A stretch of 52,982 nucleotides of DNA from an uncultured Bacteroidales bacterium. Its GTDB lineage: Bacteria > Bacteroidota > Bacteroidia > Bacteroidales > UBA932. How positions within the stretch are numbered: the stretch's first letter is position 1; every line of letters begins with the position of its first letter. This document shows positions 1-14,641 of the stretch, piece by piece. Under the pieces are notes generated by a model that ran no database searches, was not told where the DNA came from, and was given only the letters and a program-made list of their open reading frames with translations. The translations under genes and the position numbers were made by a program. The stretch covers positions 1 to 52,982 of the forward strand of contig CALUQB010000019.1 of assembly GCA_944322815.1 (NCBI GenBank), given 5' to 3'.

Positions 1-226
1 TGTCCGGAACATTTGCTACCGTACCTACACCTGTCTTCTTCTTGGTTGTGGCTGTTTTCAGACTATAAGTCCCGACTATCCTCATATCCATAACGGAAGT
101 CTGACTCACCGGGTCGTAGATGACTTTGTCCTCATTCTCCACAGTCACTATCCGTGACGGCCTCGTACATCCCATCAGCAGGGGCATCACCGTCCCCGCA
201 CTTGTTTTTGTTGAGTTGTAAAGCAT
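1..226 (-). CDS. Hypothetical protein, 3' end cut by window edge
   Basis: Not recognised. An open frame of 75 codons runs from an ATG at 226 to the window edge without a stop, so only the N-terminus is seen. It begins MLYNSTKTSAGTV and then has MPLLMGC, which resembles a lipobox (LMGC) but lacks the long hydrophobic stretch of a normal lipoprotein signal, so export is uncertain. The rest is polar with many Thr, Val and Lys residues. It starts 10 nt after the stop of the TerB-like gene, on the same strand, and so looks like the fifth gene of the left-hand cassette. Confidence is moderate that it is coding and low for any role. Confidence 0.55.
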   Translation of the reverse strand, partial: MLYNSTKTSAGTVMPLLMGCTRPSRIVTVENEDKVIYDPVSQTSVMDMRIVGTYSLKTATTKKKTGVGTVANVPD

Positions 227-236
227 AATTTTAATT

Positions 237-599
237 TTATAGATTGAACTCTTTTCTCCACTGCGAGAAAAACTGTTGTTCCTGTTCTGATACGACGGAA
301 TCAGCCTTTATCACGTTTCCGATAAATTCTGAAAAAGAGTCAAGTATCGCCCGTCTTTCAACCTTATTGAATTCCTTCAGATATGTTTTCGTTTCGGAAA
401 CAATATCAGAGAAAGAATATGAAGAATCTAATGCCTTAACAGCCAATTTTCTGGTTTCACCAGAAACAGAACAGCCGTTATTGTCAAGTTCAGAAAGGAA
501 ATTTTCAATGAATTTTCTTTCTGTCTCATCATATACACCGTCACAATTGGCAAAAAACAATCCTGTTTTCACCAATAAAATCACTACTGTATCATTCAT
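237..599 (-). CDS. TerB-like small helical protein
   Basis: A 120-residue acidic protein predicted to be all helical. Residues about 15-32 read FFANCDGVYDETERKFIENF and residues about 98-112 read IKADSVVSEQEQQFFSQW; the pattern DG-x-Y/V-x-x-E-x-x-F/f is that of the TerB (tellurite-resistance B) helical bundle, which in known proteins can bind metal ions and often acts as an accessory part of membrane-linked stress or defence complexes. No transmembrane segment or signal is seen. The gene lies 9 nt downstream of a 48-aa hydrophobic ORF and 10 nt upstream of the cut-off gene, so cotranscription is likely. The TerB assignment is from pattern only; the function in this cassette is unknown. Confidence 0.7.
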   Translation of the reverse strand: MNDTVVILLVKTGLFFANCDGVYDETERKFIENFLSELDNNGCSVSGETRKLAVKALDSSYSFSDIVSETKTYLKEFNKVERRAILDSFSEFIGNVIKADSVVSEQEQQFFSQWRKEFNL

Positions 600-608
600 A
601 GCTATTGA

Positions 609-755
609 TTATTTACCTGATATTGCTTTTATCGCCAAAGCTGCAACTGCAATAGTGCCTAACGCGATTGTACCTATCAATCCTTTTTGATTGTTCTGTC
701 CAGAAGTAATAATATCCTTTACCCCGGATGCTGCGTTTTTAGTTACATTTTCCAT
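609..755 (-). CDS. 48-aa hydrophobic small protein
   Basis: A small ORF of 48 codons plus TAA. It begins MENVTKNAASGVKDIITSGQ, a polar, possibly amphipathic N-terminal half, followed by a hydrophobic run of about 20 residues (GLIGTIALGTIAVAALAIKA) and a basic end. This fits a single-span membrane peptide. It is held between the 744-aa gene (18 nt upstream) and the TerB-like gene (9 nt downstream) on the same strand, which supports it as a real cassette member. No family is recognised. Small hydrophobic partners occur in several membrane stress and toxin modules, but nothing in this sequence shows such a role. Confidence 0.6.
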   Translation of the reverse strand: MENVTKNAASGVKDIITSGQNNQKGLIGTIALGTIAVAALAIKAISGK

Positions 756-773
756 AATGACATAATTTTATTG

Positions 774-3008
774 TTAAACATTTGGTTTTAATACGGTACG
801 TTCAATTTCCGCGGCCCGATCCCGTGAGATGCCGAGCGACTCCCGTTCTCTGTCAAGAAGTCGTCGCATACGGTCGGAAATCTCACCGTCTGATGTCATT
901 TCCCGGAATGTATCAAGATACTCCTGTTCTTCTTCAGTTAATTGTGGCTTACACATACTCTCTATTTCTGCCGCACGCTCCGGAGATATTCCAAATTTGT
1001 TTCTCTTCCTTTCGAGATATTTTCTGTCGTCATCAGATATTGAACCTCCGTCTTCAAGGCAAAACAGGACTTCTTCCTTGTATTTTTCTTCTTCATGGCT
1101 TAAACATTCGCACTGATGTTCGTTTTTGTCATTAGGGACTGTGTTTGACTCTGTTTGGGAATTTTTATCTTTCTGCGCTTCTTGATGTTTCAGATAAATT
1201 TTCATTCCTTTACGGATATTTGAAGAATCCATCCCTTTGAGAAACAATCCTGCTTTGTCACCCTTTTCTCCTTCCTGCAGAATAGTACAGAACATCATTA
1301 TATCTTCAATAACAGACTCGTATTCAGAATCTTCATCGCAAATGACCACTTGCTTCCCAGTCTTAATGTCCATAGCCAGTGTTCCCAAAGCGACAGTTCC
1401 ACGTCCTCCAGTATAAGCGAATTTGTCTATCTCCATTACCAGATCCTGTTCTGAATAATTCATTGATTCAGAAACTGAAGGCAATTCATCAAGAGGCTTG
1501 AACTCCACGGATATTTCCCATTCTGTTTCCTGTGTAGAACTGAATGTCGTATCTGCTGATGCAGAATAATTTGCAGATACATTTCCCATAAGATTCTGAA
1601 ATGCAGCCTTCACATCTGTAATCAGATTTTGCGACATATTGGAAGTTTCGTAAGAAGAAACTCTTTTTGTAAAATCAAGCAGCCCGCCTTCCATCCTTTG
1701 CTTTATCAAAGACAGGAGTTCCGGATCTTTTTTCGTCCATACAAGATCTTTTGGACAGTATGGTGCCTTGTAAGGAGAAAATGTCTGTGTCATGAACATT
1801 TCATCTCTTGTCTCGCTGTCCGCAGATGCATTTGACTGATTTTTTACTCCGCCTGACCCGGAGACGATCTTATAGCCTCCTTCTGCATTTACTGCGGATG
1901 ATGTCATGACATTGGAGGACACCTTGTTCCCTTTCAGACATCTTGCTGTTATCTTTGTAGCACCCAAACACTGGAACAAGCGGCACATTTCCTGAACTTT
2001 TTCATAGAAAAGCGTTAACTGTGCATTTTCAAATGGAAGATATACAGGTCTCAACGGATGGGCATAATAGAGGGTGTTAGCCTGCGGATGTCCCATAGGG
2101 AATGATATGTCCTTCGGCAATTCATCCAATGGAAAAACGTACTTTATATTGTCTGTTTCGTCATAACACCCGCCGATATGGTCGAGATCCCGTACAGTAA
2201 ATATAAATTGACGGTCATGATAAGGCTGCAATGAAAATATAAACCGATCTTTAGTCAACTGAATGTCGTTCATCAATTCGTCGGCACAAAGGTCAAGCAT
2301 TTCATCATTGTCTTCCCATGAATACTCTTTATTGATTTCCCATTTGTTCAACTGATCCAAAAATTCGATACTTTCCTCTATCGTCTTGTCAATAATTACT
2401 CCATATCCTCCTTCTCGGCTTCTTATCAGATGTTCTGTATCGTAGTTTTTGCCCGATATCAGTGATATTGCCCATTCTTTCTCTTTGTCATTAAAAGCAT
2501 AAGGCAGCCCCTGGATAGCCAGTCTGGTCGCTTCCATGTGATTATTCATCCAATGTAGCCTTTCGGCTCTTGCGCAACAGAGCGTACAGTACCAAAATTG
2601 TATATTATCTTCGTTCAAATTATTTTCAAGCTTCTGTAAAGCTTCGAGACATTTATCATTTGCTTCATCAGCATCTTGTTTTGCTCTTGTCCTTTCATCG
2701 TTAGGTAAAGTTCCGTCAAGAACAGAATTCCACGCATTATTGAACACCTTGTCCCAGCCTAAATATTTGTTGTAATATGCCATGGCATAGTCATCTTCAG
2801 TAGAACAATATTCTTGGATATATCTGTCCACCTTATGCTGAAATCTGTCATTGTCAAACGAATCTCTTCTCAAGTCCTTGTCTATTGAATTTGACAGTTC
2901 TTCTTTCTTCTCTTTTGTTTCCGCCACTTTTGCAACCTGTTTAGATACGGCTTCAGCGGCATAACCTACTAAAGGACTTGCAGTCTTAATAACATCAATT
3001 AGTTTCAT
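774..3008 (-). CDS. 744-aa cassette protein with C-terminal helical-hairpin repeats
   Basis: Not recognised as a characterised family. Residues 1-240 look helical and charged, with a stretch around 130-170 (FWYCTLCCARAERL, NNHMEATRLAIQGL) that resembles TPR-like helices. Residues about 280-345 hold a Tyr/Pro-rich segment (MGHPQANTLYYAHPLRPVYLP). Residues about 370-410 are rich in Gly, Ser and Asn, and about 420-510 contain W-x-x-x-DPELLSLIKQRMEGG and a likely beta-rich region. After a hydrophilic linker near residues 605-632 come two copies of about 50 residues (about 636-685 and 690-738) sharing DG-x-IS-D...R..L.R.R..xGIS..RAAEIE. No signal peptide and no clear membrane span. Spacing to both flanking cassette genes is short. 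Base composition is clearly AT-richer than the core genes to the right. Confidence 0.8.
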   Translation of the reverse strand: MKLIDVIKTASPLVGYAAEAVSKQVAKVAETKEKKEELSNSIDKDLRRDSFDNDRFQHKVDRYIQEYCSTEDDYAMAYYNKYLGWDKVFNNAWNSVLDGTLPNDERTRAKQDADEANDKCLEALQKLENNLNEDNIQFWYCTLCCARAERLHWMNNHMEATRLAIQGLPYAFNDKEKEWAISLISGKNYDTEHLIRSREGGYGVIIDKTIEESIEFLDQLNKWEINKEYSWEDNDEMLDLCADELMNDIQLTKDRFIFSLQPYHDRQFIFTVRDLDHIGGCYDETDNIKYVFPLDELPKDISFPMGHPQANTLYYAHPLRPVYLPFENAQLTLFYEKVQEMCRLFQCLGATKITARCLKGNKVSSNVMTSSAVNAEGGYKIVSGSGGVKNQSNASADSETRDEMFMTQTFSPYKAPYCPKDLVWTKKDPELLSLIKQRMEGGLLDFTKRVSSYETSNMSQNLITDVKAAFQNLMGNVSANYSASADTTFSSTQETEWEISVEFKPLDELPSVSESMNYSEQDLVMEIDKFAYTGGRGTVALGTLAMDIKTGKQVVICDEDSEYESVIEDIMMFCTILQEGEKGDKAGLFLKGMDSSNIRKGMKIYLKHQEAQKDKNSQTESNTVPNDKNEHQCECLSHEEEKYKEEVLFCLEDGGSISDDDRKYLERKRNKFGISPERAAEIESMCKPQLTEEEQEYLDTFREMTSDGEISDRMRRLLDRERESLGISRDRAAEIERTVLKPNV

Positions 3009-3042
3009 GATGAAGTTATTTATTTTATAGTTCGTTGCATTT

Positions 3043-3567
3043 CTATAAACTTTTCACGAATATATACCCTACCGTCCACAACCCTGCCCAGCTGATATAG
3101 ACGAACGCTGCCATGAAGCGGTTGAGACTGTATTTGAGGGTCATATCGAACATGCCGACATCGCTGTTGACATACAGCATCCTGCGAGAGACGACATCGT
3201 CCATATTTATGGCGGTATATATACCGATAGCCAGTGCCACAACGAGCGATACTGCACCATTGGCAATCAAGGCAGACGGCATCCACGGCAAGGTGGCGCT
3301 ACCTATTGTATCGGGACTGACTATGACATAGATGTACCCGGCCAGCATCAAAAGGAACAATATCATGCTCATCTCAAAGTTCTTGACCGTTATCGATGCC
3401 GGCAGCGCCATTAAAAATACGGCGACACTGATGAGTCCCCATTTCTCCTGCGCCGTAAAGACAAAAGAATCAATCCCGACGGCGAAAAGAATTCCGAATA
3501 CGATGCACAGAAGCACCGTCACAAACACCTCAAAGTTGGCTATCAGCCATGAAACAAATGTCTTCAT
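3043..3567 (-). CDS. Multi-pass membrane protein, first gene of cassette
   Basis: A 174-residue protein with about five predicted membrane spans: residues about 10-33 (FEVFVTVLLCIVFGILFAVG), 43-60, 66-85 (MSMILFLLMLAGYIYVIV), 96-118 (LIANGAVSLVVALAIGIYTA) and 148-172. Between spans four and five is a soluble loop with DDVVSRRMLYVNSD. No family is recognised and no catalytic residues stand out. It is the most upstream gene of the minus-strand cassette, 34 nt ahead of the 744-aa gene, and its start is followed upstream by a 575-bp stretch without a convincing gene. It could anchor the cassette's soluble proteins at the inner membrane, which is inference from gene order only. Confidence 0.75.
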   Translation of the reverse strand: MKTFVSWLIANFEVFVTVLLCIVFGILFAVGIDSFVFTAQEKWGLISVAVFLMALPASITVKNFEMSMILFLLMLAGYIYVIVSPDTIGSATLPWMPSALIANGAVSLVVALAIGIYTAINMDDVVSRRMLYVNSDVGMFDMTLKYSLNRFMAAFVYISWAGLWTVGYIFVKSL

Positions 3568-3739
3568 TATATTCTGGAATCAGGTTAAAAATATTTCTCA
3601 ACAACAATGGCACAACAATCCGTTTCATAATTTATCGTGTTACTAATACAGTTCCACTCATGCACAAAAAAAGTGCGGTGCTGCCGTTTTCCATATTACG
3701 ACAGGCACCGCCAAGCGCCTCATAGAGATACAGATAAAC

Positions 3740-3952
3740 AAGCAGTCCGCACCCTTACAGGTATACGAACAACGCTTCTTTATCCCTTTCTCTACTATGG
3801 CCTGCAGGATTATCCCGACGGCCAAACAAAATTGGCGGTTTTGTCGTAAAAGGGAATCCGAAGATTCTATTCCAAATTTTCAGCTTTTCCGGTCTTTGAC
3901 CGATTTATACAAAGTTAAAAATTTTTCATAAGAACATTGCTGCGGACTGCTT
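3740..3952. repeat. Pair of 12-bp inverted arms
   Basis: AAGCAGTCCGCA at 3740-3751 is the exact reverse complement of TGCGGACTGCTT at 3941-3952. The two arms bound 213 bp without an intact gene, the layout of a small non-autonomous element or a decayed insertion sequence. No matching target-site duplication is visible outside the arms, so this remains weak. Confidence 0.35.
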
Positions 3953-3978
3953 TTTTCGCACAATTATCTTGTAATGTT

Positions 3979-4019
3979 GAATTCAGGGACTCTCTGCCAA
4001 TGCCTGCAATCCTGAATTC
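3979..4019. repeat. 9-bp inverted repeat, possible hairpin
   Basis: GAATTCAGG at 3979-3987 pairs exactly with CCTGAATTC at 4011-4019 across a 23-nt loop. It sits about 125 nt downstream of the minus-strand glycosylase-like gene and could end its transcript, but no T-run follows on either strand. Confidence 0.45.
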
Positions 4020-4142
4020 CCCTTCAATAAAATTACACTTTAATATATAAGCGAAGAAAAAATTAGGACAGGGATTTTATAAAATAATTATTATCAACAA
4101 GTAAAATTTGAGTTTATGAAAAGTTCATTACACGAGCCGGAA

Positions 4143-5153
4143 TCAGTCTCGCCTGCGTCTGTGCTTCAGATTCAAATCACTGATACGTTTTTCGATATTC
4201 GCGATATCGGTATGCAGCATGTCCTGGATGTCCTTGTATGTAAGCCTGTTTTTGTTGGGCGACAAGTCTCTGACAGCCCGCCGTATCTCATGTATGAGCC
4301 TGACCGTCTTTTCCGAATCTTTTTCGTGGCACTCTATGCGCGGCACCGGACTGTCTTGTACTGCATGAATAATATCATGTGCATTGTAAAGGATCGAGGA
4401 TATGCGGTCTATAAGACATGTTTCCGTAAGATTCATTTGTTCCATCAGGAATTTCCTGTACCACGCATAGCGGACTCTTTTTCTTCTATATCGCGGAGAC
4501 ATGTGTATGGAAAATTGTCCGTCATAGGCGACAGCCACCTCCCAGACAGACATGGAACCGACGAAATAGTTACCTATAAATTTGAGATTCAATCCTTTCA
4601 GTTTGCGCGCATTGCTGAACACGGCATCCTTTACGGCATCTGTCCAGATGTATATGAGCTCCGGTCTGAGTTCCTCCAGGACTTGCATGAATGCCGGGAA
4701 ATCAGCATCGAGTACAGATTTGCGATCCGGATATGTGAAGTCTTCCGCTTCAGGAAGAAAATGCTGGATATAATTGTAGAATGCCACTCTGTCCCAGAAG
4801 TCTGCGCGTTCCTGCCGGGATATGATGCGGCCTCGTATCCCCGTCATGAAGCGTGTGAACTCCCCGTAGGAGGGACAGCGTTCACCTTCGGTATAAGAGT
4901 CTATCTCTATGATATTGCTGTTCGAAATCCGGTAATAGCCATTATACAGGTCCATCCTGTCCTTGTATATGGGGCACAAGTCGTCAAATTCCCTGGAACG
5001 GCCTTTCCCGACACATTGTTCATAATAGGTACAGCCATACTGGCCGGCGTGGGCTTCCCAGCAAAAATGATAGGCTCCCACGACAAGTGTTTTCACTCCG
5101 TTGAATCCTTCGGAATATCTATTGCCTTTTCTTGGCTTGAAAAAATAACGCAA
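4143..5153 (-). CDS. Uracil-DNA-glycosylase-like protein with C-terminal helical extension
   Basis: A 336-residue protein. Residues about 17-32 (FNGVKTLVVGAYHFCW) resemble the first strand and loop of the uracil-DNA glycosylase fold, FWDRVAFYNYIQHFLP at about 119-134 resembles the middle of that fold, and RPELIYIWTDAV at about 163-174 matches the central strand preceding its second motif; IHMSPRYRRKR near 217-227 sits where an H-P/S motif would be. Several Cys residues (CTYYEQC, LCPIY) are near the N-terminus. About 100 C-terminal residues form a charged helical region. The start appears to be TTG at 5151-5153: a stop lies six codons upstream and no ATG is near. It lies 46 nt after the phosphopantetheinyl transferase gene. 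A base-excision role is inferred from fold resemblance only. Confidence 0.6.
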   Translation of the reverse strand: MRYFFKPRKGNRYSEGFNGVKTLVVGAYHFCWEAHAGQYGCTYYEQCVGKGRSREFDDLCPIYKDRMDLYNGYYRISNSNIIEIDSYTEGERCPSYGEFTRFMTGIRGRIISRQERADFWDRVAFYNYIQHFLPEAEDFTYPDRKSVLDADFPAFMQVLEELRPELIYIWTDAVKDAVFSNARKLKGLNLKFIGNYFVGSMSVWEVAVAYDGQFSIHMSPRYRRKRVRYAWYRKFLMEQMNLTETCLIDRISSILYNAHDIIHAVQDSPVPRIECHEKDSEKTVRLIHEIRRAVRDLSPNKNRLTYKDIQDMLHTDIANIEKRISDLNLKHRRRRD

Positions 5154-5199
5154 ACAAATTAGAAAATTTCAAAATTGGCTAACAATGGTGTTTCATGGG

Positions 5200-5835
5200 T
5201 CAGCCTACTACCCAGACTAAGACGTGCCTGTCGAAAAAGACATAACCGAGCTCGAATTCTTCTTCATGTCCGTCCTTGTGGGTAAAGGTGGCTTCCAGTT
5301 CGCCTTTCCCCTTGAGAGTGAATTTTTCCACTTCGATCTGTTCCGCAAAGTCGACCCTGTTCTGGGACATCCTTTTGTATATGGCTTCTTTTGCACACCA
5401 GTAGATGGCCAGCTGCTCGTTCTTCTGGTCGTCATCCAGATCTTCTATCTCTTCTTCGGAGAGGGCTTTCTGTTCTACTGCCGAGAAATCCCTGTCCAGG
5501 GACTCGATGTCGATGCCGAGATCGTCTTCCTGATGAGTGATCACGGCGACGTACTTTTCGCAGTGGGTTATGCTTATGTTGGTGATACAGTTTTCGAGAA
5601 AAGGCTTGCCGTTGTCATGATGGCCGAGGTAAACCTTTTCCTCGAACATTTCATTCAGGAGTGCGCGGACAGCCAGCTTCTGCTTCCGGAGACTCTGATT
5701 GCGGATCAGCGAGATTTCTTCCATTTCATCTGTCGGCACAGAACTCATGGCTATGAGGTCTTCTTCCGTCTCGGTGATCTGCCAGACTCCGATTTCTGCT
5801 TTATTATCAAGCGTTTTCCTTAAATACAGTCCCAT
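5200..5835 (-). CDS. 4'-phosphopantetheinyl transferase, Sfp type
   Basis: Members of this superfamily move the phosphopantetheine arm of coenzyme A onto a conserved Ser of acyl or peptidyl carrier proteins. The 211-residue length fits. The two hallmark motifs are present: GIDIES at about residues 112-117 (metal-binding Asp and Glu) and WCAKEAIYK at about 146-154 (W-x-x-KEA). NISITHCEKYVAV near 87-99 matches the substrate-side strand of the family. The ATG at 5833-5835 follows a long leader starting near a strong minus-strand promoter at 6092-6099. The carrier protein it serves is not in this window. The exact type (Sfp or another group) is not resolved. Confidence 0.88.
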   Translation of the reverse strand: MGLYLRKTLDNKAEIGVWQITETEEDLIAMSSVPTDEMEEISLIRNQSLRKQKLAVRALLNEMFEEKVYLGHHDNGKPFLENCITNISITHCEKYVAVITHQEDDLGIDIESLDRDFSAVEQKALSEEEIEDLDDDQKNEQLAIYWCAKEAIYKRMSQNRVDFAEQIEVEKFTLKGKGELEATFTHKDGHEEEFELGYVFFDRHVLVWVVG

Positions 5836-5856
5836 AATAATCCAATATTCCCGTTC

Positions 5857-6063
5857 TTATGAAATGGTATTCCCTGTGGTGCCTATATACGACAATCCTG
5901 TATGTGCCTTATAGACGCATACACAATGACACCCGGTCCCGTTTTCGTTTTCGGAACCGGACTTCGAGTCCAGTATCATGAAAATACAGTTCGACAGCGG
6001 ATCGTCAGACATCGAGTCCGCTTCAATAGCTGAAGGTTTTACTGTTGGACTGGGAGGTTCCAC
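5857..6063 (-). CDS. Possible small Cys-containing protein or leader ORF
   Basis: An open frame of 68 codons begins with GTG at 6061-6063 and ends 21 nt before the phosphopantetheinyl transferase start; an internal ATG would give 51 residues (MSDDPLSNCIFMILDSKSG and onward). It contains GCHCVCVYKAHTG. A strong promoter element lies about 30 nt upstream, so the region is very likely transcribed. The amino-acid composition is not clearly protein-like, and the stretch may instead be an untranslated leader with hairpins such as CCGGTTCC/GGGACCGG (about 5925-5955). I would not assign a function. Confidence 0.3.
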   Translation of the reverse strand: MEPPSPTVKPSAIEADSMSDDPLSNCIFMILDSKSGSENENGTGCHCVCVYKAHTGLSYIGTTGNTIS

Positions 6064-6091
6064 TTCGTTTTATCGGTTTTGATTCAGTCTG

Positions 6092-6117
6092 CAAATATAG
6101 ACATTTTTTAAATGTCT
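6092..6117 (-). promoter_or_regulatory. Minus-strand promoter with overlapping palindrome
   Basis: Reading leftward, TATATTTGCA places a Bacteroidota -7 element at 6099-6092. Immediately upstream, GACATTTTTTAAATGTC at 6100-6116 has 7-bp perfect inverted arms around a 3-nt spacer, where a repressor or activator could contact the promoter. It should drive the phosphopantetheinyl transferase and the glycosylase-like gene. Confidence 0.6.
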
Positions 6118-6202
6118 TCTTATTATTTGGGAAAATTTCTGACAGACTGAATCTTTTAAGAAATTATCATGACGAAAATGGAATTATCGTCAAAGAAATT
6201 GT

Positions 6203-6210
6203 TATATTTG
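6203..6210 (+). promoter_or_regulatory. mdh promoter -7 element
   Basis: TATATTTG matches the Bacteroidota TAnnTTTG element and lies 48 nt before the malate dehydrogenase ATG. No clear -33 TTTG is seen at the usual distance. Confidence 0.6.
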
Positions 6211-6258
6211 TCGGATTGAAGACAGCCGAATAATAAGTTGCATAAAATATAATGTATT

Positions 6259-7254
6259 ATGGATTTTCTGACAAATGAAAAACTGACCATCATCGGGGCT
6301 GCCGGAATGATCGGGTCGAATATGGCCCAGACTGCCATGATGATGAAGCTTACTCCGAATCTCTGCCTTTATGATCCTTTCGCTACTGGCCTGAAAGGTG
6401 TGGCTGAGGAAATGTATCACTGTGCATTCGACGGAGCGGAGATCACGTATACTGATGATATCAAGGAAGCTTTGACGGGGGCCAAATATGTGGTTTCTTC
6501 CGGCGGAGCGCCACGCAAACAGGGCATGACCCGTGAGGATCTGCTCAAGGGGAACTGCGAGATCGCGGAGCAGCTCGGAAAGGATATCAAGGCATACTGC
6601 CCTGATGTAAAGCACGTGGTCATCATCTTCAACCCTGCTGACCTCACAGGTCTCGTTACCCTTCTTCATTCAGGACTGAAGCCGTCACAGCTTACGACTC
6701 TGGCCGCTCTGGATTCCACCAGACTTCAGAGTGCTCTTGCGCAGGAGTTCGGCGTACAGCAATGCAAGGTGACAGGCTGCCACACTTATGGCGGTCACGG
6801 CGAGCAGATGGCTGTATTCGCTTCCGAGGCTAAGGTGGACGGAGTGCCTTTCACGGAACTTCTCGGCTCGAAACTTCCTTTCGTAAGATGGGATGAAATC
6901 AAGGGCGATGTCATACAGGGAGGAAAGAAGATCATAGAGCTCAGAGGCCGTTCTTCATTCCAGAGCCCTTCATACGTATCCATCGAGATGATAGCTGCAG
7001 CCATGGGCGGCAAGCCGTTTACCTGGCCTGCAGGCTGCTATGTGAACACTCCTAAGTATCACAATGTGATGATGGCCATGCCTACCGTCATCGACGGTAC
7101 CGGTGTCCACTATTCGGATGTAAAGGGTACTGCCGAGGAAATGGCCGCTCTCGATGCTTCATACGAACATCTCTGCAAGATGCGTGATGAGATCATCGGT
7201 CTGAATATCATCCCTGCAGTCGAAGACTGGAAGACAGTGAATCCGAATCTCTAG
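6259..7254 (+). CDS. mdh: Malate dehydrogenase
   Basis: A 331-residue NAD-dependent dehydrogenase of the lactate/malate family, which interconverts malate and oxaloacetate in the cytosol. The N-terminal Rossmann motif reads IIGAAGMIGSNMA (residues about 11-23), with the acidic ribose-binding Asp in LYDPF near 38. The catalytic His lies in TYGGHGEQM near residues 176-184, where most relatives have GGHGDTM; the Glu-Gln variant is known from Bacteroidota enzymes. FNPAD near 124 matches the conserved N-P-x-D motif. It stands alone with its own promoter and a strong terminator. Substrate is assigned from overall family resemblance; lactate use cannot be excluded from sequence. Confidence 0.88.
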   Translation: MDFLTNEKLTIIGAAGMIGSNMAQTAMMMKLTPNLCLYDPFATGLKGVAEEMYHCAFDGAEITYTDDIKEALTGAKYVVSSGGAPRKQGMTREDLLKGNCEIAEQLGKDIKAYCPDVKHVVIIFNPADLTGLVTLLHSGLKPSQLTTLAALDSTRLQSALAQEFGVQQCKVTGCHTYGGHGEQMAVFASEAKVDGVPFTELLGSKLPFVRWDEIKGDVIQGGKKIIELRGRSSFQSPSYVSIEMIAAAMGGKPFTWPAGCYVNTPKYHNVMMAMPTVIDGTGVHYSDVKGTAEEMAALDASYEHLCKMRDEIIGLNIIPAVEDWKTVNPNL

Positions 7255-7274
7255 CAGACAGGAATCCCTGACAG

Positions 7275-7317
7275 AAAACGGTGTCTCAAGGAATTTTTCC
7301 GGGACACCGTTTTTTTT
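7275..7317 (+). terminator. Intrinsic terminator after mdh
   Basis: ACGGTGTC (7278-7285) pairs with GACACCGT (7303-7310) and is followed by a run of T residues to 7317. It is 20-odd nt after the mdh stop. Confidence 0.9.
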
Positions 7318-7370
7318 GCGTTCGGTTGCGCACCGATCTTAGCGTAAAACCAGTCTGTTTTTGAAAAAAG

Positions 7371-7402
7371 TTTAGAGTTGAATTTAAAATTGCTTAATTT
7401 TG
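7371..7402 (+). promoter_or_regulatory. Transketolase promoter
   Basis: TAATTTTG at 7395-7402 fits the TAnnTTTG element. A TTTA at 7371-7374, 20 nt upstream, can serve as a weak -33. The transketolase ATG is 47 nt downstream. Confidence 0.6.
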
Positions 7403-7448
7403 GGTCTCGGTTGGGTTTTCCGGAAATTAATCAATAGTCAGTATAATC

Positions 7449-9461
7449 ATGAAAAACGACAAGAAACTTTTGGACAGGGCCGCTGACAATATCAGGATTC
7501 TGGCGGCTTCCATGGTAGAAAAGGCGAAGTCAGGACATCCTGGCGGCGCTATGGGAGGAGCTGATTTCATCAATGTGCTTTTCTCCGAGTATCTGGTGTA
7601 TGATCCGGAGAACCCGAGGTGGGAAAGCAGGGACCGTTTCTTCCTGGACCCCGGACACATGTCTCCGATGCTTTATTCCGTACTGGCGTTGTCCGGAAAG
7701 TTTTCTCTTGACGAGCTTGCACAGTTCAGACAGTGGGGAAGTCCGACTCCGGGTCATCCTGAGGTGAATGTCGATCGTGGTATCGAGAATACTTCCGGTC
7801 CGCTCGGCCAGGGCCATACATTCGCCGTCGGAGCGGCCATAGCGGCCAAGTTCCTGAAAGCCAGGCTGGGTGATCAGATGAATCAGACCATATATGCGTA
7901 CATATCTGACGGCGGTATACAGGAGGAGATTTCGCAGGGAGCGGGGCGTATAGCCGGATATCTCGGACTCGACAACCTCGTTATGTTTTATGATTCCAAC
8001 GACATACAGCTTTCGACGGCTACCGATGCGGTGACTGATGAAGATGTGGAAGCAAAGTACCGCGCCTGGGGCTGGGATGTGATGAAAATCGACGGCAATG
8101 ATGCCGATCAGATCCGTCAGGCTCTCGACTGGGCAAAGGCCGTTCAGGGAAAACCGGCCCTGATCATCGGACATACCGTTATGGGCAAGGGTGCACGCAA
8201 GGCCGACGGGTCCAGCTACGAGAATTGCTGTGCCACACACGGGGCTCCGCTTGGCGGCGATGCATACGTGAATACAGTGAAGAATCTGGGCGGTGACCCG
8301 GAGAACCCGTTCGTGATTTTCCCTGAAGTCCGGGCCATCTATGAAGCCCGCAAACAGGAGCTTCGGGCAATAGTCGCACAGAAAAAGTCCTGTCATGACA
8401 AATGGGCTGCAGAGAATCCTGAACTGGCGGCCAAGATGCGGAAGTGGTTTTCAGGAGAGGCCCCTACACTGGACTGGAATGCCATCGTACAGAAACCGGG
8501 AGCTGCAACCAGGGGTGCTTCTTCTACCGTACTTGGCTATCTCGCGGAACATGTTGAGAATATGATCGTGTCTTCGGCCGATCTTTCGAATTCCGACAAG
8601 ACCGACGGCTTCCTGAAGAAGACCCATGCATTCACCAGAGGAGATTTTTCAGGAGCTTTCCTCCAGGCGGGAGTATCCGAGCTGACCATGGCCTGCTGCT
8701 GTATAGGCATGATGCTTCACGGCGGTGTCATAGCTGCCTGCGCTACATTCTTCGTATTCTCTGACTATATGAAACCGGCAGTCAGGATGGCTGCCCTGAT
8801 GGAAGTTCCTGTAAAGTTCATCTGGTCTCATGATGCTTTCAGGGTGGGAGAAGACGGGCCTACGCATGAGCCTGTGGAGCAGGAGATGCAGCTTCGTCTT
8901 ATGGAGAGGCTGAAGAATCATCACGGAAGGAATTCCATGCTGGTTCTCCGCCCTGCCGATGTGGAAGAGACTACCCGGGCCTGGAAACTGGCCATGGAGA
9001 ATACCATGACTCCTTCCGCCCTGATCTTGTCAAGGCAGAATATAGAAAACCTGCCTGCCGGCAATGATTATGGCCAGGTATCCAAAGGCGCATACGTTGT
9101 GGGCGGATCAGACGAAAATCCGGATGTCATACTGGTGGCTTCCGGTTCGGAGGTTTCCACGCTGGTGGCCGGTGCCGCCCTTCTGAAAGCTGACGGAATC
9201 CGCGTGCGTATCGTTTCTGTCCCTTCAGAGGGGCTGTTCAGGACTCAGGATCCTGCATATCAGGCTTCGGTACTTCCTGCCGGCGTGAAGAAATTCGGTC
9301 TGACTGCAGGCCTTCCTGTCACGCTGGAGAGTCTGACAGGTGCCGACGGAAAGGTATGGGGGCTTGATTCTTTTGGATTCTCGGCTCCGTACAAGGTTCT
9401 GGATGAAAAGCTCGGCTTTACAGCTCAGAATGTATACGACCAGGTGAAGTCGATGCTCTGA
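7449..9461 (+). CDS. tkt: Transketolase
   Basis: A 670-residue thiamine-diphosphate enzyme that moves two-carbon ketol units between sugar phosphates in the pentose phosphate pathway. Residues about 26-36 read KSGHPGGAMGG and about 99-120 read PGHPEVNVDRGIENTSGPLGQG, both classical N-terminal cofactor-binding motifs of transketolases. The pyrimidine domain carries EDGPTHEPVEQ near 466-476, with the conserved Glu-Asp-Gly-Pro-Thr-His motif, and the C-terminal domain has ILVASGSEV near 560. Full length for the family with no gap. It is a single-gene unit with its own promoter and a bidirectional terminator shared with the opposite tRNA gene. Confidence 0.96.
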   Translation: MKNDKKLLDRAADNIRILAASMVEKAKSGHPGGAMGGADFINVLFSEYLVYDPENPRWESRDRFFLDPGHMSPMLYSVLALSGKFSLDELAQFRQWGSPTPGHPEVNVDRGIENTSGPLGQGHTFAVGAAIAAKFLKARLGDQMNQTIYAYISDGGIQEEISQGAGRIAGYLGLDNLVMFYDSNDIQLSTATDAVTDEDVEAKYRAWGWDVMKIDGNDADQIRQALDWAKAVQGKPALIIGHTVMGKGARKADGSSYENCCATHGAPLGGDAYVNTVKNLGGDPENPFVIFPEVRAIYEARKQELRAIVAQKKSCHDKWAAENPELAAKMRKWFSGEAPTLDWNAIVQKPGAATRGASSTVLGYLAEHVENMIVSSADLSNSDKTDGFLKKTHAFTRGDFSGAFLQAGVSELTMACCCIGMMLHGGVIAACATFFVFSDYMKPAVRMAALMEVPVKFIWSHDAFRVGEDGPTHEPVEQEMQLRLMERLKNHHGRNSMLVLRPADVEETTRAWKLAMENTMTPSALILSRQNIENLPAGNDYGQVSKGAYVVGGSDENPDVILVASGSEVSTLVAGAALLKADGIRVRIVSVPSEGLFRTQDPAYQASVLPAGVKKFGLTAGLPVTLESLTGADGKVWGLDSFGFSAPYKVLDEKLGFTAQNVYDQVKSML

Positions 9462-9506
9462 CAGATGCTGATGCCCCTTCCGGCCCGGCGGGGAACAGTA
9501 TCAAGT

Positions 9507-9548
9507 AAAAAAAGCAGCCATCTGAAAATCAGATGGCTGCTTTTTTTA
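9507..9548. terminator. Bidirectional terminator between tkt and tRNA-Pro
   Basis: GCAGCCATCTGA pairs perfectly with TCAGATGGCTGC around a short A-loop, with an A-run on the left and a T-run on the right. It can stop transketolase transcripts going right and tRNA-Pro transcripts going left. Confidence 0.92.
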
Positions 9549-9551
9549 ATG

Positions 9552-9625
9552 TCGGGGTACTGTGACTCGAACACAGGACCCTCTGGTCCCAAACCAGATG
9601 CGCTAGCCAACTGCGCCACACCCCG
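9552..9625 (-). tRNA. tRNA-Pro (anticodon TGG)
   Basis: Read on the minus strand, the gene folds as a standard tRNA: acceptor CGGGGTG with TACCCCG, D-arm GCGCAGTTGGCTAGCGC, anticodon stem TCTGG/CCAGA around loop TTTGGGA (anticodon TGG) and T-arm with GTTCGAGTC. The discriminator is A and the 3' CCA is not encoded. 74 nt. A promoter with TTTG-N19-TATATTTG lies just upstream. Confidence 0.97.
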
Positions 9626-9651
9626 AATTCCTCTTCTTTCGAATTGGACTG

Positions 9652-9682
9652 CAAATATACACTTTAATTTCGAAACAACAAA
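9652..9682 (-). promoter_or_regulatory. tRNA-Pro promoter
   Basis: Reading leftward, TTTG (9682-9679), 19 nt, then TATATTTG (9659-9652), followed by CAG. This is a near-perfect Bacteroidota promoter, and the tRNA begins 27 nt past it. Confidence 0.85.
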
Positions 9683-9726
9683 ATATTTTCAATATTTTTA
9701 TTCTCAAAATCGGGTAAGATAAAAAA

Positions 9727-9758
9727 AAGATGCAGGAGACGTTCATCTCCTGCATCTT
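9727..9758 (-). terminator. Terminator of the ribosomal protein operon
   Basis: Reading leftward, GATGCAGGAGA (9756-9746) and TCTCCTGCATC (9739-9729) form an 11-bp stem with a 6-nt loop, followed by a run of eight T residues (9728-9721). It lies about 25 nt after the rpsC stop and ends the operon there. Confidence 0.92.
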
Positions 9759-9781
9759 CATATCATGTTTTCCGTATCGGA

Positions 9782-10531
9782 TTATTTGTTTTCCTTACGG
9801 TCTCCGCCACGGTTGCGTCCGCCACGACGACGTTCTCCACGGCCTCCCTGACGGGATGAATTCTGAGCCTGCGCTGCAGAAATGCCTGCGTTTGGAGAAA
9901 GGTCTTTCTTTCCGTAAACTTCACCGTTGCAGATCCATACCTTGATACCGAGCACGCCGACTTTGGTATGAGCCTCTGCGAGAGCGTAGTCTATGTCAGC
10001 ACGGAAAGTGTGGAGTGGAGTACGTCCTTCCTTGAACATTTCGCTCCTGGCCATTTCAGCGCCGCCAAGACGGCCGCTGATCTGGATTTTGATACCTTCC
10101 GCACCTACTCTCATAGTAGTGCCGATAGCCATCTTGATAGCCCTTCTGTAGGATACACGGCCCTCAATCTGGCGGGCTATGTTGTCAGCTACGAAATGAG
10201 CGTCGGTCTCAGGCTTCTTCACTTCGAAGATGTTGATCTGGACATCTTTGCTGGTTACCTTTTTCAGCTCTTCCTTGAGCATGTCCACTTCAGCTCCGCC
10301 TTTTCCGATGATGACACCTGGTCTGGCAGCATGAATGGTCACGGTAATGAGTTTCAGAGTCCTCTCGATAACTATCTTTGAAAGTCCTGCCTTTGCAAGA
10401 CGGTTTACGAGATATTTGCGGATTTCATAGTCTTCAGCGATCTTGGCTGCGTAGTCACCACCACACCAGTTAGAGTCCCAACCACGGGTGATACCGATTC
10501 TGTTGCTGATAGGATTTGTTTTCTGTCCCAT
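9782..10531 (-). CDS. rpsC: 30S ribosomal protein S3
   Basis: A 249-residue S3, part of the head of the small subunit at the mRNA entry channel. The N-terminus [20 protein letters not shown] and the KH-domain signature [14 protein letters not shown] (about 75-88) identify it; [16 protein letters not shown] (about 150-165) is the conserved C-terminal domain motif. The last 30 residues form an Arg/Gly-rich tail ([19 protein letters not shown]) longer than in Escherichia coli S3. It is the last gene of this operon: a strong terminator follows, and rplP, the usual next gene, is absent. Confidence 0.97.
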
Positions 10532-10534
10532 AAT

Positions 10535-10954
10535 TTATTCCTCCACTGTTGCTGGTTTCTTGACATCGAGGATGACGGTGATGTGGTTTGAACGCTTGCG
10601 GATCCTTCCGGCCCTTCCCTGAGGACAAGGACGGATTCTCTTGAGGGTTCTGCCTTCATTTACCATGAGGGTCTTGATATATACATTTCCGTTATCCAGT
10701 TCGCTTGACTTGTCCTGGTTCTTTGCTTCCCAGTTTGCGATAGCGCTGCGCACTACCTTCTCGAGACTTGCAGAAGCATGCTTCTTCGAGTACTTGAGAA
10801 TATCGAGCGCCTTGTTCACCTCCACGCCTCTGATGATATCGGCTACCAGACGCATTTTGCGAGGTGAAGTAGGAACATTATTCAGTTTAGCTATAGCTGT
10901 TTCCTTCTTTTCAGCTTTCAGCCTCTCGGCCATCAATCTTTTACGAGCTCCCAT
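10535..10954 (-). CDS. rplV: 50S ribosomal protein L22
   Basis: A 139-residue L22, which binds several 23S rRNA domains and lines the peptide exit tunnel. [15 protein letters not shown] (about 29-43) and the C-terminal beta-hairpin [22 protein letters not shown] are clear family signatures. The N-terminus has a 25-residue basic extension before the conserved core ([18 protein letters not shown]), which is common in Bacteroidota. The gene ends 3 nt before rpsC and begins 19 nt after rpsS, inside the operon. Confidence 0.96.
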
Positions 10955-10973
10955 AATTCAATTTTCATTTTAA

Positions 10974-11243
10974 TTATTTACGATTGCCCGAATGGCCTCT
11001 GAATGTTCTTGTCGGAGCGAACTCTCCGAGCTTGTGGCCTACCATGTTCTCAGTAACGTAAACAGGAATAAACTTGTTTCCATTATGAACAGCGATAGTG
11101 TGACCCACGAAGTCAGGAGAGATCATACTTGCGCGTGACCAAGTCTTGACAACCTCTTTCTTCATGCTACCTTCATTCATAGCAAGAATTTTCTTTTCCA
11201 GGCTAGCCTGGATATAAGGACCTTTTCTTAATGAACGACTCAT
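10974..11243 (-). CDS. rpsS: 30S ribosomal protein S19
   Basis: An 89-residue S19 of the small-subunit head, which contacts 16S rRNA together with S13. [11 protein letters not shown] at the start and [16 protein letters not shown] near the end are diagnostic. Normal length. It is placed between rplB and rplV as in most bacteria. Confidence 0.97.
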
Positions 11244-11264
11244 AATCTCTAAAGTTTTATTCCG

Positions 11265-12089
11265 TTATTTTTTCCTTCTTTCAATGATAAACCTGTTTGA
11301 AGCGCTCTTAGGATTACGTGTCTTGTAGCCCTTGGCTGGGAGACCCTTGCGTGAACGTGGATGACCTCCGGATGCACGTCCTTCACCACCACCCATCGGG
11401 TGATCTACCGGGTTCATGACAACGCCTCTGTTGCGAGGTCTGCGTCCGAGCCATCTGTTACGTCCTGCCTTACCGTGAGACTCCAAATTGTGGTCTGGAT
11501 TTGATACAGTACCCACTGTTGCGCGGCAAGTCACAAGTACCATTCTGGTCTCGCCTGAAGGGAGACGTACGATGGCGTGGTTGCCTTCGCGTGCTGCGAG
11601 CTGGGCGAATGCGCCTGCACTACGTGCCATGGCTGCACCCTGACCAGGACGAAGCTCTATGTTGTGGATAAGTGTACCGAGCGGAATTTCAGAGAGTGGA
11701 AGAGTGTTGCCGACTTCAGGAGCCACGCCAGGGCCTGAAGCTATGACCTGTCCTACTTTCAGTCCGTTAGGAGCGATGATATATTTCTTTACACCATCTT
11801 CATATTTGACCAGTGCGATACGTGCGCTGCGGTTCGGATCGTATTCGATCGTCATCACCGTAGCCTTGCAGTCGTCCTTGTCACGACGGAAGTCGATGAT
11901 ACGGTACATTCTCTTGTGACCGCCACCGATGTAGCGCATAGTCATTTTACCCTGGTTGTTTCGTCCGCCTGTCTTTTTCAGCGGAGCCAACAGAGATTTC
12001 TCAGGAACTTTGCAGGTAATGTCGTCAAAAGCACTAATTACCTTGTTTCTCTGTCCCGGGGTTACCGGTTTGAATTTTCTTACTGCCAT
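11265..12089 (-). CDS. rplB: 50S ribosomal protein L2
   Basis: A 274-residue L2, needed for subunit joining and peptidyl-transferase activity. The N-terminal [17 protein letters not shown], the internal [20 protein letters not shown] and the C-terminal [19 protein letters not shown] with the functionally essential His identify it. Length is normal. It lies in the conserved order rplW-rplB-rpsS. Confidence 0.98.
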
Positions 12090-12100
12090 TGTACAATACC

Positions 12101-12394
12101 TTAAATGTTACTATAGAAATCTATCTTGTCTTCACCGGCGAGAGTCACGTAAGCTTTCTTGTAGTGATTCTCGCGGCCTTTAAGTATTCCTGCCTTTGTG
12201 TAGCGGGATTTCTTTTTCCCGTGATAGTTCAATGTATTGACTGAAGCTACAGATACATTGTACATCTGCTCAACGGCAGCCTTGATCTGAAGTTTGTTGG
12301 CATCACGGTCAACTATGAAGCCATAGCGGTTCAACTTTTCGCCCTGAACCGTCATCTTTTCAGTTACTATAGGCTTAATGATAATTCCCATCAC
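12101..12394 (-). CDS. rplW: 50S ribosomal protein L23
   Basis: A 97-residue L23, which sits at the exit of the peptide tunnel and docks trigger factor and the signal recognition particle. [11 protein letters not shown] near the start and [26 protein letters not shown] match the family. Two ATG codons occur in a row; the second (12391) may be the real start. It is 11 nt ahead of rplB. Confidence 0.96.
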
Positions 12395-12403
12395 TCAATC
12401 GTT

Positions 12404-13030
12404 TTATTTGATTCTTGACTCAAGTATATCCTGCACGCCATCAACCATGACCATAGAATATGCATTCATAATGGCGTAAGTGTTGATCTCATCCACAGTG
12501 ATCACTTTTACGTATGGGATATTGCGTGAAGAAAGATAAATGTTGGCTGAATTCTGCGGAAGAACGAAAAGTACCTTCCTGTCGCCTGCCTTAAGATTCT
12601 TCAGAATCTGGATGAATTCCTTGGTCTTAGGAGCTTCCATGGCGAAAGGTTCTACCATGATCAGGGCATTTTCCTTTGCCTTGTATGAAAGAGCAGAGAA
12701 TCTTGCGAGCTGTTTCAGCTTCTTGTTCAATTTTTTGCGGTAGCAGCGAGGCTTAGGGCCGAATACACGTCCGCCGCCTACATAGATACCGGCTTTCAAG
12801 CTGCCGTGACGGGCGCCGCCTGAACCTTTCTGACGGATCAGTTTCTTGGTGCTGTAGGCTACTTCGCTACGGTCCTTGGTTTTGGCTGTACCCTGTCTCT
12901 GGTTGGCCAGATACTGTTTTACATCGAGATAAATCGCATGGTCGTTAGGCTCGATACCGAAGATGGCATCGTTAAGGACCACCTTCTTTCCGGATTCTGT
13001 TCCGTCAATCTTATAAACTGACAATTCCAT
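12404..13030 (-). CDS. rplD: 50S ribosomal protein L4
   Basis: A 208-residue L4, an early-assembly protein whose extended loop lines the exit tunnel. The loop is visible as [14 protein letters not shown] and [14 protein letters not shown] (about 44-80), followed by [18 protein letters not shown]. In Escherichia coli L4 also represses its own operon; whether that holds here is unknown, but a hairpin is present in the operon leader. Gap to rplC is 4 nt. Confidence 0.97.
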
Positions 13031-13034
13031 AGCC

Positions 13035-13658
13035 TTAATCCTCCAAAATTACATATGAACCCTTTGCTCCTGGTACAGAGCCTTTCAGAACGAGAAGGTT
13101 GTTCTCAGGGATGATCTTCACCACTTCGAGGTTGAATACCTTCACTCTTTCGTTGCCCATGTGCCCTGCCATGCGCATTCCCTTGAATACGCGTGAAGGC
13201 CATGATGATGCACCGAGAGAACCCGGGTGACGAAGCCTGTTGTGCTGGCCATGTGTCTGTCCGCCTACTCCGGCGAAGCCATGGCGTTTCACGACTCCCT
13301 GGAAACCTTTACCTTTGGAAGTACCGACAACGTCGATGTAGACAGTGTTCGCGAACACGTCGGCTACAGTCAGAACGTCGCCTAATTTGAGATCCTGAGC
13401 GAAATCTGCCTTGAACTCGACAAGTTTGCGCTTAGGGGTGGTTCCTGCCTTTGCGAAGTGCCCCATCAGAGGCTTGCTGGCGTGCTTTTCTGAAATTTCG
13501 TCATAGGCAAGCTGTACAGCGGCATAACCATCTTTTTCTACTGTACGAATCTGCGTAACAACACACGGACCAGCCTCAACTACGGTGCATGGAATATTTT
13601 TTCCATCAGCACCGAAAACGGAAGTCATTCCGATTTTCTTTCCAATTAATCCAGGCAT
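13035..13658 (-). CDS. rplC: 50S ribosomal protein L3
   Basis: A 207-residue L3, an early-binding 23S rRNA protein whose loop reaches the peptidyl-transferase centre. [15 protein letters not shown] at the start and the loop segment [20 protein letters not shown] (about 128-147), with the Gln methylated in some species, identify it. It is the first gene of this operon: rpsJ, the usual first gene, is not in front of it. The leader begins near 13713 from the promoter at 13720-13750. Confidence 0.97.
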
Positions 13659-13696
13659 TGGTTTGTTTAATTAATTGTTTATTAATAACTTAATCG

Positions 13697-13715
13697 CCGC
13701 AATACATTTTTGCGG
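13697..13715 (-). promoter_or_regulatory. Leader hairpin of rplC operon
   Basis: CCGCAA and TTGCGG form a 6-bp stem around a 7-nt loop close to the expected 5' end of the operon mRNA. It could mediate autoregulation by a ribosomal protein or simply protect the transcript. Confidence 0.4.
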
Positions 13716-13719
13716 GCTG

Positions 13720-13750
13720 CAAATATACAATTAATATTTTAATTTTCAAC
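13720..13750 (-). promoter_or_regulatory. Ribosomal operon promoter
   Basis: Reading leftward, GTTG (13750-13747), 19 nt, TATATTTG (13727-13720), then CAG. This is a strong Bacteroidota promoter for rplC and the genes after it. Confidence 0.8.
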
Positions 13751-13798
13751 ATCTTGACCGAAAAATAATTCTTTGTAGTCTGTTCGCGATAAAATTCC

Positions 13799-13806
13799 TA
13801 TCTTTG
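13799..13806 (+). promoter_or_regulatory. cdaA promoter -7 element
   Basis: TATCTTTG followed by CA. It is divergent from the ribosomal operon promoter about 70 nt away. A start of transcription near 13812 argues against the first ATG at 13814 as the start of cdaA. Confidence 0.65.
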
Positions 13807-13831
13807 CAAGGATATGCATTATGATATGGTA

Positions 13832-14635: not shown

Positions 14636-14641
14636 GTTTTG
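14625..14641 (+). promoter_or_regulatory. Shine-Dalgarno site setting a TTG start
   Basis: AGGAGG at 14625-14630, within the end of cdaA, lies 8 nt before the TTG at 14639. Strong sites like this are uncommon in the window and support the TTG start of mutS2. Confidence 0.65.

What the first reader, a model, noticed from the sequence alone, without database searches (positions are those of the whole stretch)
1..3567. Five-gene minus-strand cassette with a TerB-like protein, a membrane protein and an unrecognised 744-aa core protein
Five ORFs sit on one strand with gaps of 34, 18, 9 and 10 nt, in AT-richer DNA than the rest of the window. The order is membrane protein, 744-aa protein with tandem C-terminal hairpins, 48-aa hydrophobic peptide, TerB-like protein, cut-off protein. 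TerB domains are known from tellurite/stress and membrane-linked defence complexes. I know of no described system with this composition, and its flanks suggest an accessory insertion. A role in membrane stress or phage defence is inference only.
Basis: partly seen in the sequence, partly recalled or inferred. Interest (0 to 1): 0.75.

Follow-up and report, generated by a model that had tools for sequence, protein, structure and literature searches.

The report
TerB-linked modified-peptide operon, cut by contig end
The five genes look like the first part of a Bacteroidales operon for a small peptide that an ATP-using enzyme would cross-link; its unusual feature is a TerB stress-type protein beside the peptide gene, and its product and purpose are untested.

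Summary
In detail: five minus-strand ORFs with gaps of 34, 18, 9 and 10 nt in AT-rich DNA at a contig end. The cut-off gene is the precursor of a predicted ATP-grasp-modified peptide (graspetide type). In an intact close relative (L047) and an Odoribacter MAG (L048) the ATP-grasp peptide ligase follows it directly. In the window's own genome that ligase begins contig C3, 461 bp away in L047 coordinates. The ligase subfamily is a supported clade (100/99) seen in 5 of 393 genomes of the order; its precursors share a PLL leader and a DxKNxIDDxK tail. A TerB-like gene lies directly before the precursor in 4 of 6 lineages (10 of 12 genomes, seven from one genus). The 744-aa protein is not specific to this set: of 17 other loci with its central domain, 2 carry the ligase, 1 carries TerB and 11 carry a DUF6140 gene. 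Best reading: a new graspetide-type locus with TerB as recurrent partner, joined by the 744-aa module in a few genomes. Roles of TerB, the 744-aa protein and the membrane genes are inferred. No paper in the held library contains both 'graspetide' and 'TerB'.

The parts
2..226 (-). RiPP (graspetide-type) precursor, 75 aa seen, C-terminal tail missing at the contig end; leader motif MPLLMG
   Evidence: 49% identical to the L048 precursor, 95% to the complete 86-aa L047 precursor; weak match to NCBIfam TIGR04186 GRASP_targ, E=0.011, below cut-off; precursor HMM 117 bits, but that HMM includes this row
237..599 (-). TerB-like protein, 120 aa
   Evidence: PF05099 E=0.0014, 19.3 bits, gathering score 24.4; 40% identical to the L048 protein; the only PF05099 match at E<=10 in its genome
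609..755 (-). 48-aa peptide with one predicted membrane helix
   Evidence: 48% identical to the L048 56-aa peptide; hydrophobic stretch 24-48
774..3008 (-). 744-aa core protein: N-terminal half helical in a low-confidence model, central GHP..LY..HP...Y.PFE domain (about 261-509), EF-Tu domain-2-like insert (about 519-605), tandem TerB-like helical hairpins (about 638-740)
   Evidence: 15 loci with the central domain in genome contigs; EF-Tu domain 2: 41.0 bits against the EF-Tu of its own genome, PF03144 22.8 bits, below cut-off 30.3; dN/dS 0.17
3043..3567 (-). 174-aa multi-helix membrane protein
   Evidence: four hydrophobic stretches; a shorter 119-aa homologue before the core in L047; no Pfam match at E<=1
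4143..5153 (-). 336-aa flanking protein, related (25% over 166 aa) to the UDG-like 201-aa gene after the ligase in contig C3; probably a flank, not part of the peptide machinery
   Evidence: PF03167 UDG E=0.0047, below cut-off, for the 201-aa homologue in L047

Best explanation
The five genes are the 5' part of an operon that makes an ATP-grasp-modified ribosomal peptide (graspetide type). The cut-off gene encodes the precursor. The next gene, interrupted by an assembly gap and resumed at the start of contig C3, encodes an ATP-grasp peptide maturase. Inferred chemistry, by homology to MvdC/MvdD-type enzymes: the ligase is engaged by the PLL leader, activates Asp/Glu side chains with ATP, and joins them to conserved Thr/Ser/Lys side chains of the C-terminal part ([GS]Tx[SC]L[KR]xxxT ... 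DxKNxIDDxK) as ester or amide rings. Shown by comparison: TerB is a recurrent genetic partner, directly upstream of the precursor in 4 of 6 lineages. Inferred: TerB binds the precursor, the ligase or the mature peptide, as chaperone, carrier or receptor. The membrane protein, the one-helix peptide and the 744-aa protein form a membrane-linked module attached to this peptide locus in a few genomes, for export, self-protection or sensing (inferred). A YgjP-type metallopeptidase, second gene after the ligase in the window's genome, could remove the leader (inferred; not seen in the loci of L048, G117, G206 or G124).
For: Ligase: NCBIfam TIGR04187 'ATP-grasp ribosomal peptide maturase' E=7.8e-60, TIGR04185 6e-48, TIGR04184 2e-47 for L047, and 1.4e-65, 1.4e-50, 1.5e-46 for L048, all below the family cut-offs; Pfam PF21068 MvdD pre-ATP-grasp domain above cut-off for L048 (30.5 against 27). 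Order core-precursor-ligase in L047; core-peptide-TerB-precursor-ligase in L039/L048. Own genome: ligase residues 142-328 open contig C3. Window position 1 maps to L047:11760 (96% identity) and C3 position 1 to L047:12222 (94%). Precursor alignment of six: invariant M, PLL, I, YD, Q, T, L, T, D; the tail DxKNxIDDxK is in all 5 complete ones. PLLMG resembles the Phhx(1,2)h leader motif of graspetides (PMC8939145). Of six ligase loci outside the clade that I opened, three have classic graspetide-like precursors: TETFTSTEPSDSD type in L082 and L085, repeated TKT...DD in L083. Ligase clade support 100/99. TerB upstream of the precursor: window, L048, G206 and 7 of 7 carrier genomes of the G117 genus. 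Purifying selection: 0.14-0.20 for membrane, core, precursor, ligase and UDG-like genes in window/C3 against L047, and 0.043-0.045 for TerB, precursor and ligase in one within-genus pair.
Against: TIGR04186 matches the precursor only weakly (E 0.011 window, 0.0063 L047, below cut-off), and the L048 precursor does not match it at E<=0.1. Neither of the two ligases tested passes its NCBIfam cut-off. Of the six outside loci opened, I recognised no classic precursor in L086 and L087, and only a 56-aa candidate in L084. The tail does not match, by eye, the core motifs quoted in the paper sections I read, so which residues are joined is unknown. I recognised, by eye, no dedicated exporter or C39 peptidase beside the loci. 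TerB is absent in L047 and G124. The locus is patchy: 1 of 3 genomes in the family of G124 and 1 of 3 in that of G206 carry the clade's ligase. The C3 link rests on L047, not on reads. TerB scores in the window and G206 are below Pfam's gathering score, that of L048 is borderline. The metallopeptidase gene has dN/dS 0.44 and very low dS (0.05), unlike its neighbours.
Confidence: 0.75

Rival explanations
1. Two unrelated units lie side by side: a TerB-precursor-ligase peptide triad, and a separate 744-aa/membrane module whose function has nothing to do with the peptide.
For: The core family mostly lives without the ligase (2 of 17 loci have it) and often with DUF6140 (11 of 17). The triad occurs without the core beside it in G117 and G206, and precursor-ligase without it in G124; in the six relatives of G117 only about 1.5 kb each side was seen.
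Against: In L047 and L048, and in the window as far as its contig goes, the genes are on one strand with short gaps, and L047 keeps core directly before precursor (94 nt) although TerB and the 48-aa peptide are missing. The EF-Tu-like insert was found in cores of this clade only, though that may be one event.
Confidence: 0.35
2. A TerB-based membrane-stress or phage-defence system; the ligase makes a signal that TerB senses.
For: PADLOC PDC-S48 matches 14 of 16 core proteins and BnzA 3 of 16, and PDC-S48 also matches the TerB of G117 weakly (E=0.0032); the cassette is patchy; PMC7824862 (passages) describes TerB and TerD as ligand-binding domains that might sense a signal in Ter systems.
Against: Where located (window, L053), the PDC-S48 match falls on the C-terminal hairpins. 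The L047 ligase, the TerBs of L048 and G206, and the four other L047 genes tested (708-aa, DUF4112, UDG-like, YgjP-like) match no PADLOC model at E<=0.01; the window's precursor, 48-aa and membrane genes match none at E<=1, its TerB only a restriction-enzyme model at 0.0071. Ligase and precursor fit peptide biosynthesis.
Confidence: 0.15
3. The EF-Tu domain-2-like insert is a decoy that protects the producer from a peptide aimed at EF-Tu.
For: 37% identity to domain 2 of its own EF-Tu; among 16 core proteins detectable only in the window and L047, both in the peptide locus.
Against: The insert of L048 is not recognisable as EF-Tu by that test (E 0.77). Peptide loci without the core exist. EF-Tu-binding graspetides are not known to me (recall).
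Confidence: 0.07

Closest known systems
Graspetides (microviridin, thuringinin, chryseoviridin and other families; ATP-grasp ligases of the MvdC/MvdD/TIGR04187 kind)
   Same: Small precursor directly before an ATP-grasp peptide maturase; P-hydrophobic-hydrophobic leader motif; Thr/Ser, Lys and Asp/Glu in the C-terminal part; some related ligases have classic precursors.
   Different: Tail DxKNxIDDxK; TerB as partner; no C39 peptidase, ABC exporter, methyltransferase or SPASM enzyme recognised beside it; extra membrane/744-aa module in three genomes. Table 1 of PMC8939145 lists no TerB family and its main text has no occurrence of TerB.
Ter stress systems (TerB/TerC/TerD, with nucleoside-like metabolite synthesis; as described in passages of PMC7824862)
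   Same: TerB-like gene in an accessory set with membrane proteins.
   Different: No TerC, TerD, TelA, phosphoribosyltransferase or HAD gene recognised by eye among the ORFs read; the enzyme is a peptide ligase.
DUF6140 plus 744-aa-type core gene pairs of Bacteroidales ('DUF6140' found in no paper of the held library)
   Same: Same central domain and C-terminal hairpins.
   Different: Some carry zinc-ribbon, bacterial PH or TPR matches (in 2, 1 and 1 of 16 members scanned), none shows a detectable EF-Tu insert, and their loci lack ligase and precursor.

Membership tests
Graspetide biosynthetic locus | ATP-grasp ligase of the peptide-maturase family next to the precursor | tested here: met
   TIGR04187 E=7.8e-60 and TIGR04185/TIGR04184 E<1e-46 for L047, below the strict cut-offs; PF21068 above cut-off for L048; adjacent in L047, L048, G124, G117 and G206
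Graspetide biosynthetic locus | Small precursor with leader motif Phhx(1,2)h (present in about half of precursors according to PMC8939145) | tested here: met
   PLL invariant in 6 of 6 precursors; the last position is F in L048 and G117, L in G206, and Cys, only loosely hydrophobic, in window, L047 and G124; motif
Graspetide biosynthetic locus | Core with Thr/Ser/Lys acceptors and Asp/Glu donors of a described group | tested here: inconclusive
   Acceptors and donors are conserved, but I matched no described group motif by eye; the supplementary tables could not be read
Graspetide biosynthetic locus | Side-chain ester or amide rings in the product | not testable with these tools
   needs mass spectrometry
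TerB domain family (PF05099) | Score above the Pfam gathering score | tested here: inconclusive
   window 19.3 and G206 20.8 bits below 24.4; L048 24.6 (23.6); G117 35.4 above
Ter stress system | TerC/TerD/TelA or nucleoside-type synthesis genes beside TerB | tested here: not met
   none recognised by eye among the ORFs of L047, L048, L079, L080 and L081 or in the Pfam scans made of part of them
Known anti-phage system | Full match of its genes to PADLOC models | tested here: not met
   only partial, weak matches to PDC-S48, BnzA and one restriction-enzyme model

The most novel reading that the evidence does not exclude
TerB is a dedicated receptor or carrier of a cross-linked ribosomal peptide. 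The TerB-precursor-ligase triad would then be a minimal system in which a graspetide acts inside the cell as a ligand, rather than as a secreted inhibitor, and the 744-aa membrane module is an effector that some lineages attached to it. That would link Ter-type stress proteins to RiPP chemistry, a link I found in no paper of the held library.
Probability: 0.2. Interest if true: 0.75.

Novelty: new variant of a known kind. Interest (0 to 1): 0.55.

Why it matters
If true, it gives a new graspetide family with its own leader and tail, a conserved partner (TerB) whose biochemical role is unclear, and a three-gene operon simple enough to reconstitute. It would make the question 'what does TerB bind?' directly testable with a defined peptide and enzyme.

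Tried and rejected
AlphaFold of the full 744-aa protein (16-row alignment) gave mean pLDDT 52, and the central domain alone 63. Foldseek against the PDB gave no match at E<=0.001 for either; the notable one is an ENT domain (5zx1, probability 1.0, 53 columns, E 0.74), probably the C-terminal hairpins, since Pfam ENT also matches 4 of 16 core proteins weakly. No fold is claimed for the central domain. A profile of the central domain finds nothing convincing in PDB sequences (best E 0.097, RhsI2). A pore-forming reading of its Ser/Thr-rich strands was considered and dropped for want of any match.

No relative of the core in IMG/VR with a single-sequence query, which finds close relatives only, or in plasmids at E<=1e-5. 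One phage record (MT836227) has a distant relative; its other ORFs (an integrase and a TraG-like ATPase, by eye) look like an integrative element. Eight viral ligase matches are at most 32% identical and the best plasmid row listed is 32.8% (8 of 87 records listed); four viral rows fall outside the clade.

First precursor alignment used a wrong frame, redone. A second order-wide ligase search, centred on G326, listed no carrier that was not already known; how far its draw overlaps the first I cannot see. PMC8939145 was read in part: outline with abstract, passages, sections 5 and 7, and parts 1-2 of section 6. Its supplementary tables, which may already list this precursor as a cluster, could not be read. 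PMC7824862: passages only. Of ten library searches, six used the term TerB: no paper holds both 'graspetide' and 'terb'; the eight papers listed I saw only as listings, except passages of PMC7824862. The other four sought graspetides in Bacteroidetes, the maturase name and DUF6140. The library holds open-licence papers only.
Full report
WHAT IS THERE. The five minus-strand ORFs, their gaps (34, 18, 9, 10 nt) and the lower GC are as described. Window position 1 is the end of contig C19 of a 2.68-Mb, 64-contig genome, so the last gene is truncated by the assembly. In 36 same-genus genomes, matches to the 744-aa protein are confined to its EF-Tu-like stretch, so the cassette is accessory.

THE MISSING HALF. 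A relative of the 744-aa protein at 55% identity was found in G326, the same contig as the uncultured Odoribacter MAG locus L048. There the order is core, 56-aa one-helix peptide, TerB-like protein, an 86-aa homologue of the window's cut-off protein, then a 330-aa ATP-grasp protein. The ATP-grasp protein matches the NCBIfam ribosomal peptide maturases TIGR04187 (1.4e-65), TIGR04185 and TIGR04184 below their strict cut-offs, and Pfam PF21068 above cut-off. Its match in the window's own genome starts at base 1 of contig C3 and covers residues 142-325. Locus L047 (uncultured Bacteroidales MAG, 98% identical in the central domain, 216-kb contig) is intact: core, precursor of 86 aa, ATP-grasp of 328 aa, UDG-like 201-aa protein, Sel1-type protein (by eye), YgjP-like metallopeptidase. 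Window base 1 falls at L047:11760 and C3 base 1 at L047:12222, a gap of 461 bp in L047 coordinates.

THE PEPTIDE FAMILY. Ligases at 49-65% identity to L047's were found in G124, G326, G117 and G206 among 393 genomes of the order (13 of 393 at E<=1e-20, of which five, with G000, belong here). A profile search over 393 genomes centred on G326 shows a step from 570-612 bits (four genomes) to 228 bits. Of 395 class-level genomes four match at E<=1e-45: G000 itself and three distant ones. In the family of G117, 7 of 31 genomes carry it, all in one genus; in the families of G124 and G206, 1 of 3 each. The subfamily is a clade with 100/99 support in a 17-row tree whose eight clade rows include three from one genus and the close pair G000/L047. 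In every complete locus seen an 80-90-aa precursor lies directly before the ligase. In an alignment of six, M, PLL, I, YD, Q, T, L, T and D are invariant, and the five complete ones share DxKNxIDDxK near the C-terminus. Of six loci opened outside the clade, three have classic graspetide-like precursors (L082, L083, L085), one a 56-aa candidate (L084), and in two I recognised none (L086, L087). The leader fits, in some members loosely, the Phhx(1,2)h motif of PMC8939145. TIGR04186 (GRASP_targ) matches the window and L047 precursors only weakly (E 0.011, 0.0063) and not that of L048.

TERB. The gene directly before the precursor is TerB-like in the window (19.3 bits), L048 (24.6; 23.6 in the whole-genome search), G117 (35.4) and G206 (20.8), against a gathering score of 24.4, and by similarity in all seven carrier genomes of the G117 genus. 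It is not TerB in L047, where the 48-aa peptide and TerB are absent, or in G124, where a 410-aa protein with a DnaJ-type zinc-finger match stands there. So 4 of 6 lineages and 10 of 12 genomes have it; the 12 are inflated by seven from one genus. PF05099 matches at E<=10 number 0 to 6 per genome in the five genomes searched, four of the 14 over the cut-off, so adjacency by chance is unlikely; common descent with two losses, or repeated recruitment, both fit the tree (three changes). Low dN/dS in one within-genus pair of triads (0.043-0.045, with high dS) shows that all three genes are kept.

THE 744-AA PROTEIN. Its central domain (about residues 261-509) was found in 15 loci of a collection of 84,980 genomes with one peptide pattern, which will miss members, plus a phage-collection record (MT836227) and a partial copy in G051. 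Scanning these 17 loci with local HMMs: 2 have ligase and precursor (L047, L048), 1 has TerB (L048; a further hit at E 0.0044 is the core protein of L060), and 11 have a DUF6140-like gene, ten of them ending 8-517 bp before the core. Several loci are cut by contig ends, so these counts are lower bounds. Two loci (L056, L060) hold a second core-like gene. No DUF6140 gene was found in the window or L046. An EF-Tu domain-2 insert is clear in the window and L047 (41.0 and 40.5 bits against the EF-Tu of the window's genome) and not significant by that test in the other 14 of 16 proteins, although L048 has an insert at the same place. The C-terminal hairpins resemble TerB: PADLOC PDC-S48 matches the hairpins of the window and L053 cores and also the TerB of L080, and PF05099 matches the hairpins of L041 weakly. 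Structure prediction was too weak to name a fold.

MECHANISM. Shown: gene order, homology, conservation. Inferred: ligation of acid to hydroxyl or amine side chains in the tail, TerB as binding partner, leader removal by the YgjP-like peptidase in this genome (its dN/dS, 0.44 at dS 0.05, sets it apart from its neighbours), and a membrane-linked role for the 174-aa, 48-aa and 744-aa proteins. The alternative that the core/membrane genes are mere neighbours is serious and is given 0.35; the readings overlap, so the numbers need not add to 1.

NOVELTY. The kind (graspetide locus) is known. No paper in the held open-access library holds both 'graspetide' and 'terb', and other searches with TerB listed nothing that by its title or abstract start describes such a link; those papers were not opened, save passages of PMC7824862. 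The supplementary tables of PMC8939145 were not readable here and may list this precursor.

Noticed in passing
L050, L052-L057, L059-L061, L038: A DUF6140-like gene (73 aa in most) accompanies the 744-aa-type core gene in 11 of 17 loci, an apparently undescribed two-gene unit of Bacteroidales.
   Followed up: partly
window 4143-5153; L046 589-1194; L047 3508-4587 and 12810-13415: Related UDG-like proteins lie on both sides of the cassette (25% over 166 aa), possibly marking an insertion hot spot.
   Followed up: partly
L047 5071-8805: Before the membrane gene L047 carries three genes absent from that place in the window: a 708-aa protein, a DUF4112 protein and a zinc-ribbon-type protein with a hydrophobic stretch.
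   Followed up: no
L038 (MT836227.1) 1-14848: An 'unverified' phage record whose ORFs include, by eye, an integrase and a TraG-like ATPase, so probably a piece of an integrative element; it carries a core gene.
   Followed up: partly
L056 11110-12702; L060 5455-6828: Second core-like genes lie close after the first.
   Followed up: no
L079 5967-7199: A 410-aa protein with a DnaJ-type zinc-finger match takes the place of TerB before the precursor.
   Followed up: partly
window 3043-3567 and L047 8827-9186: The membrane protein is 174 aa in the window but 119 aa in L047, with an internal stretch missing.
   Followed up: no
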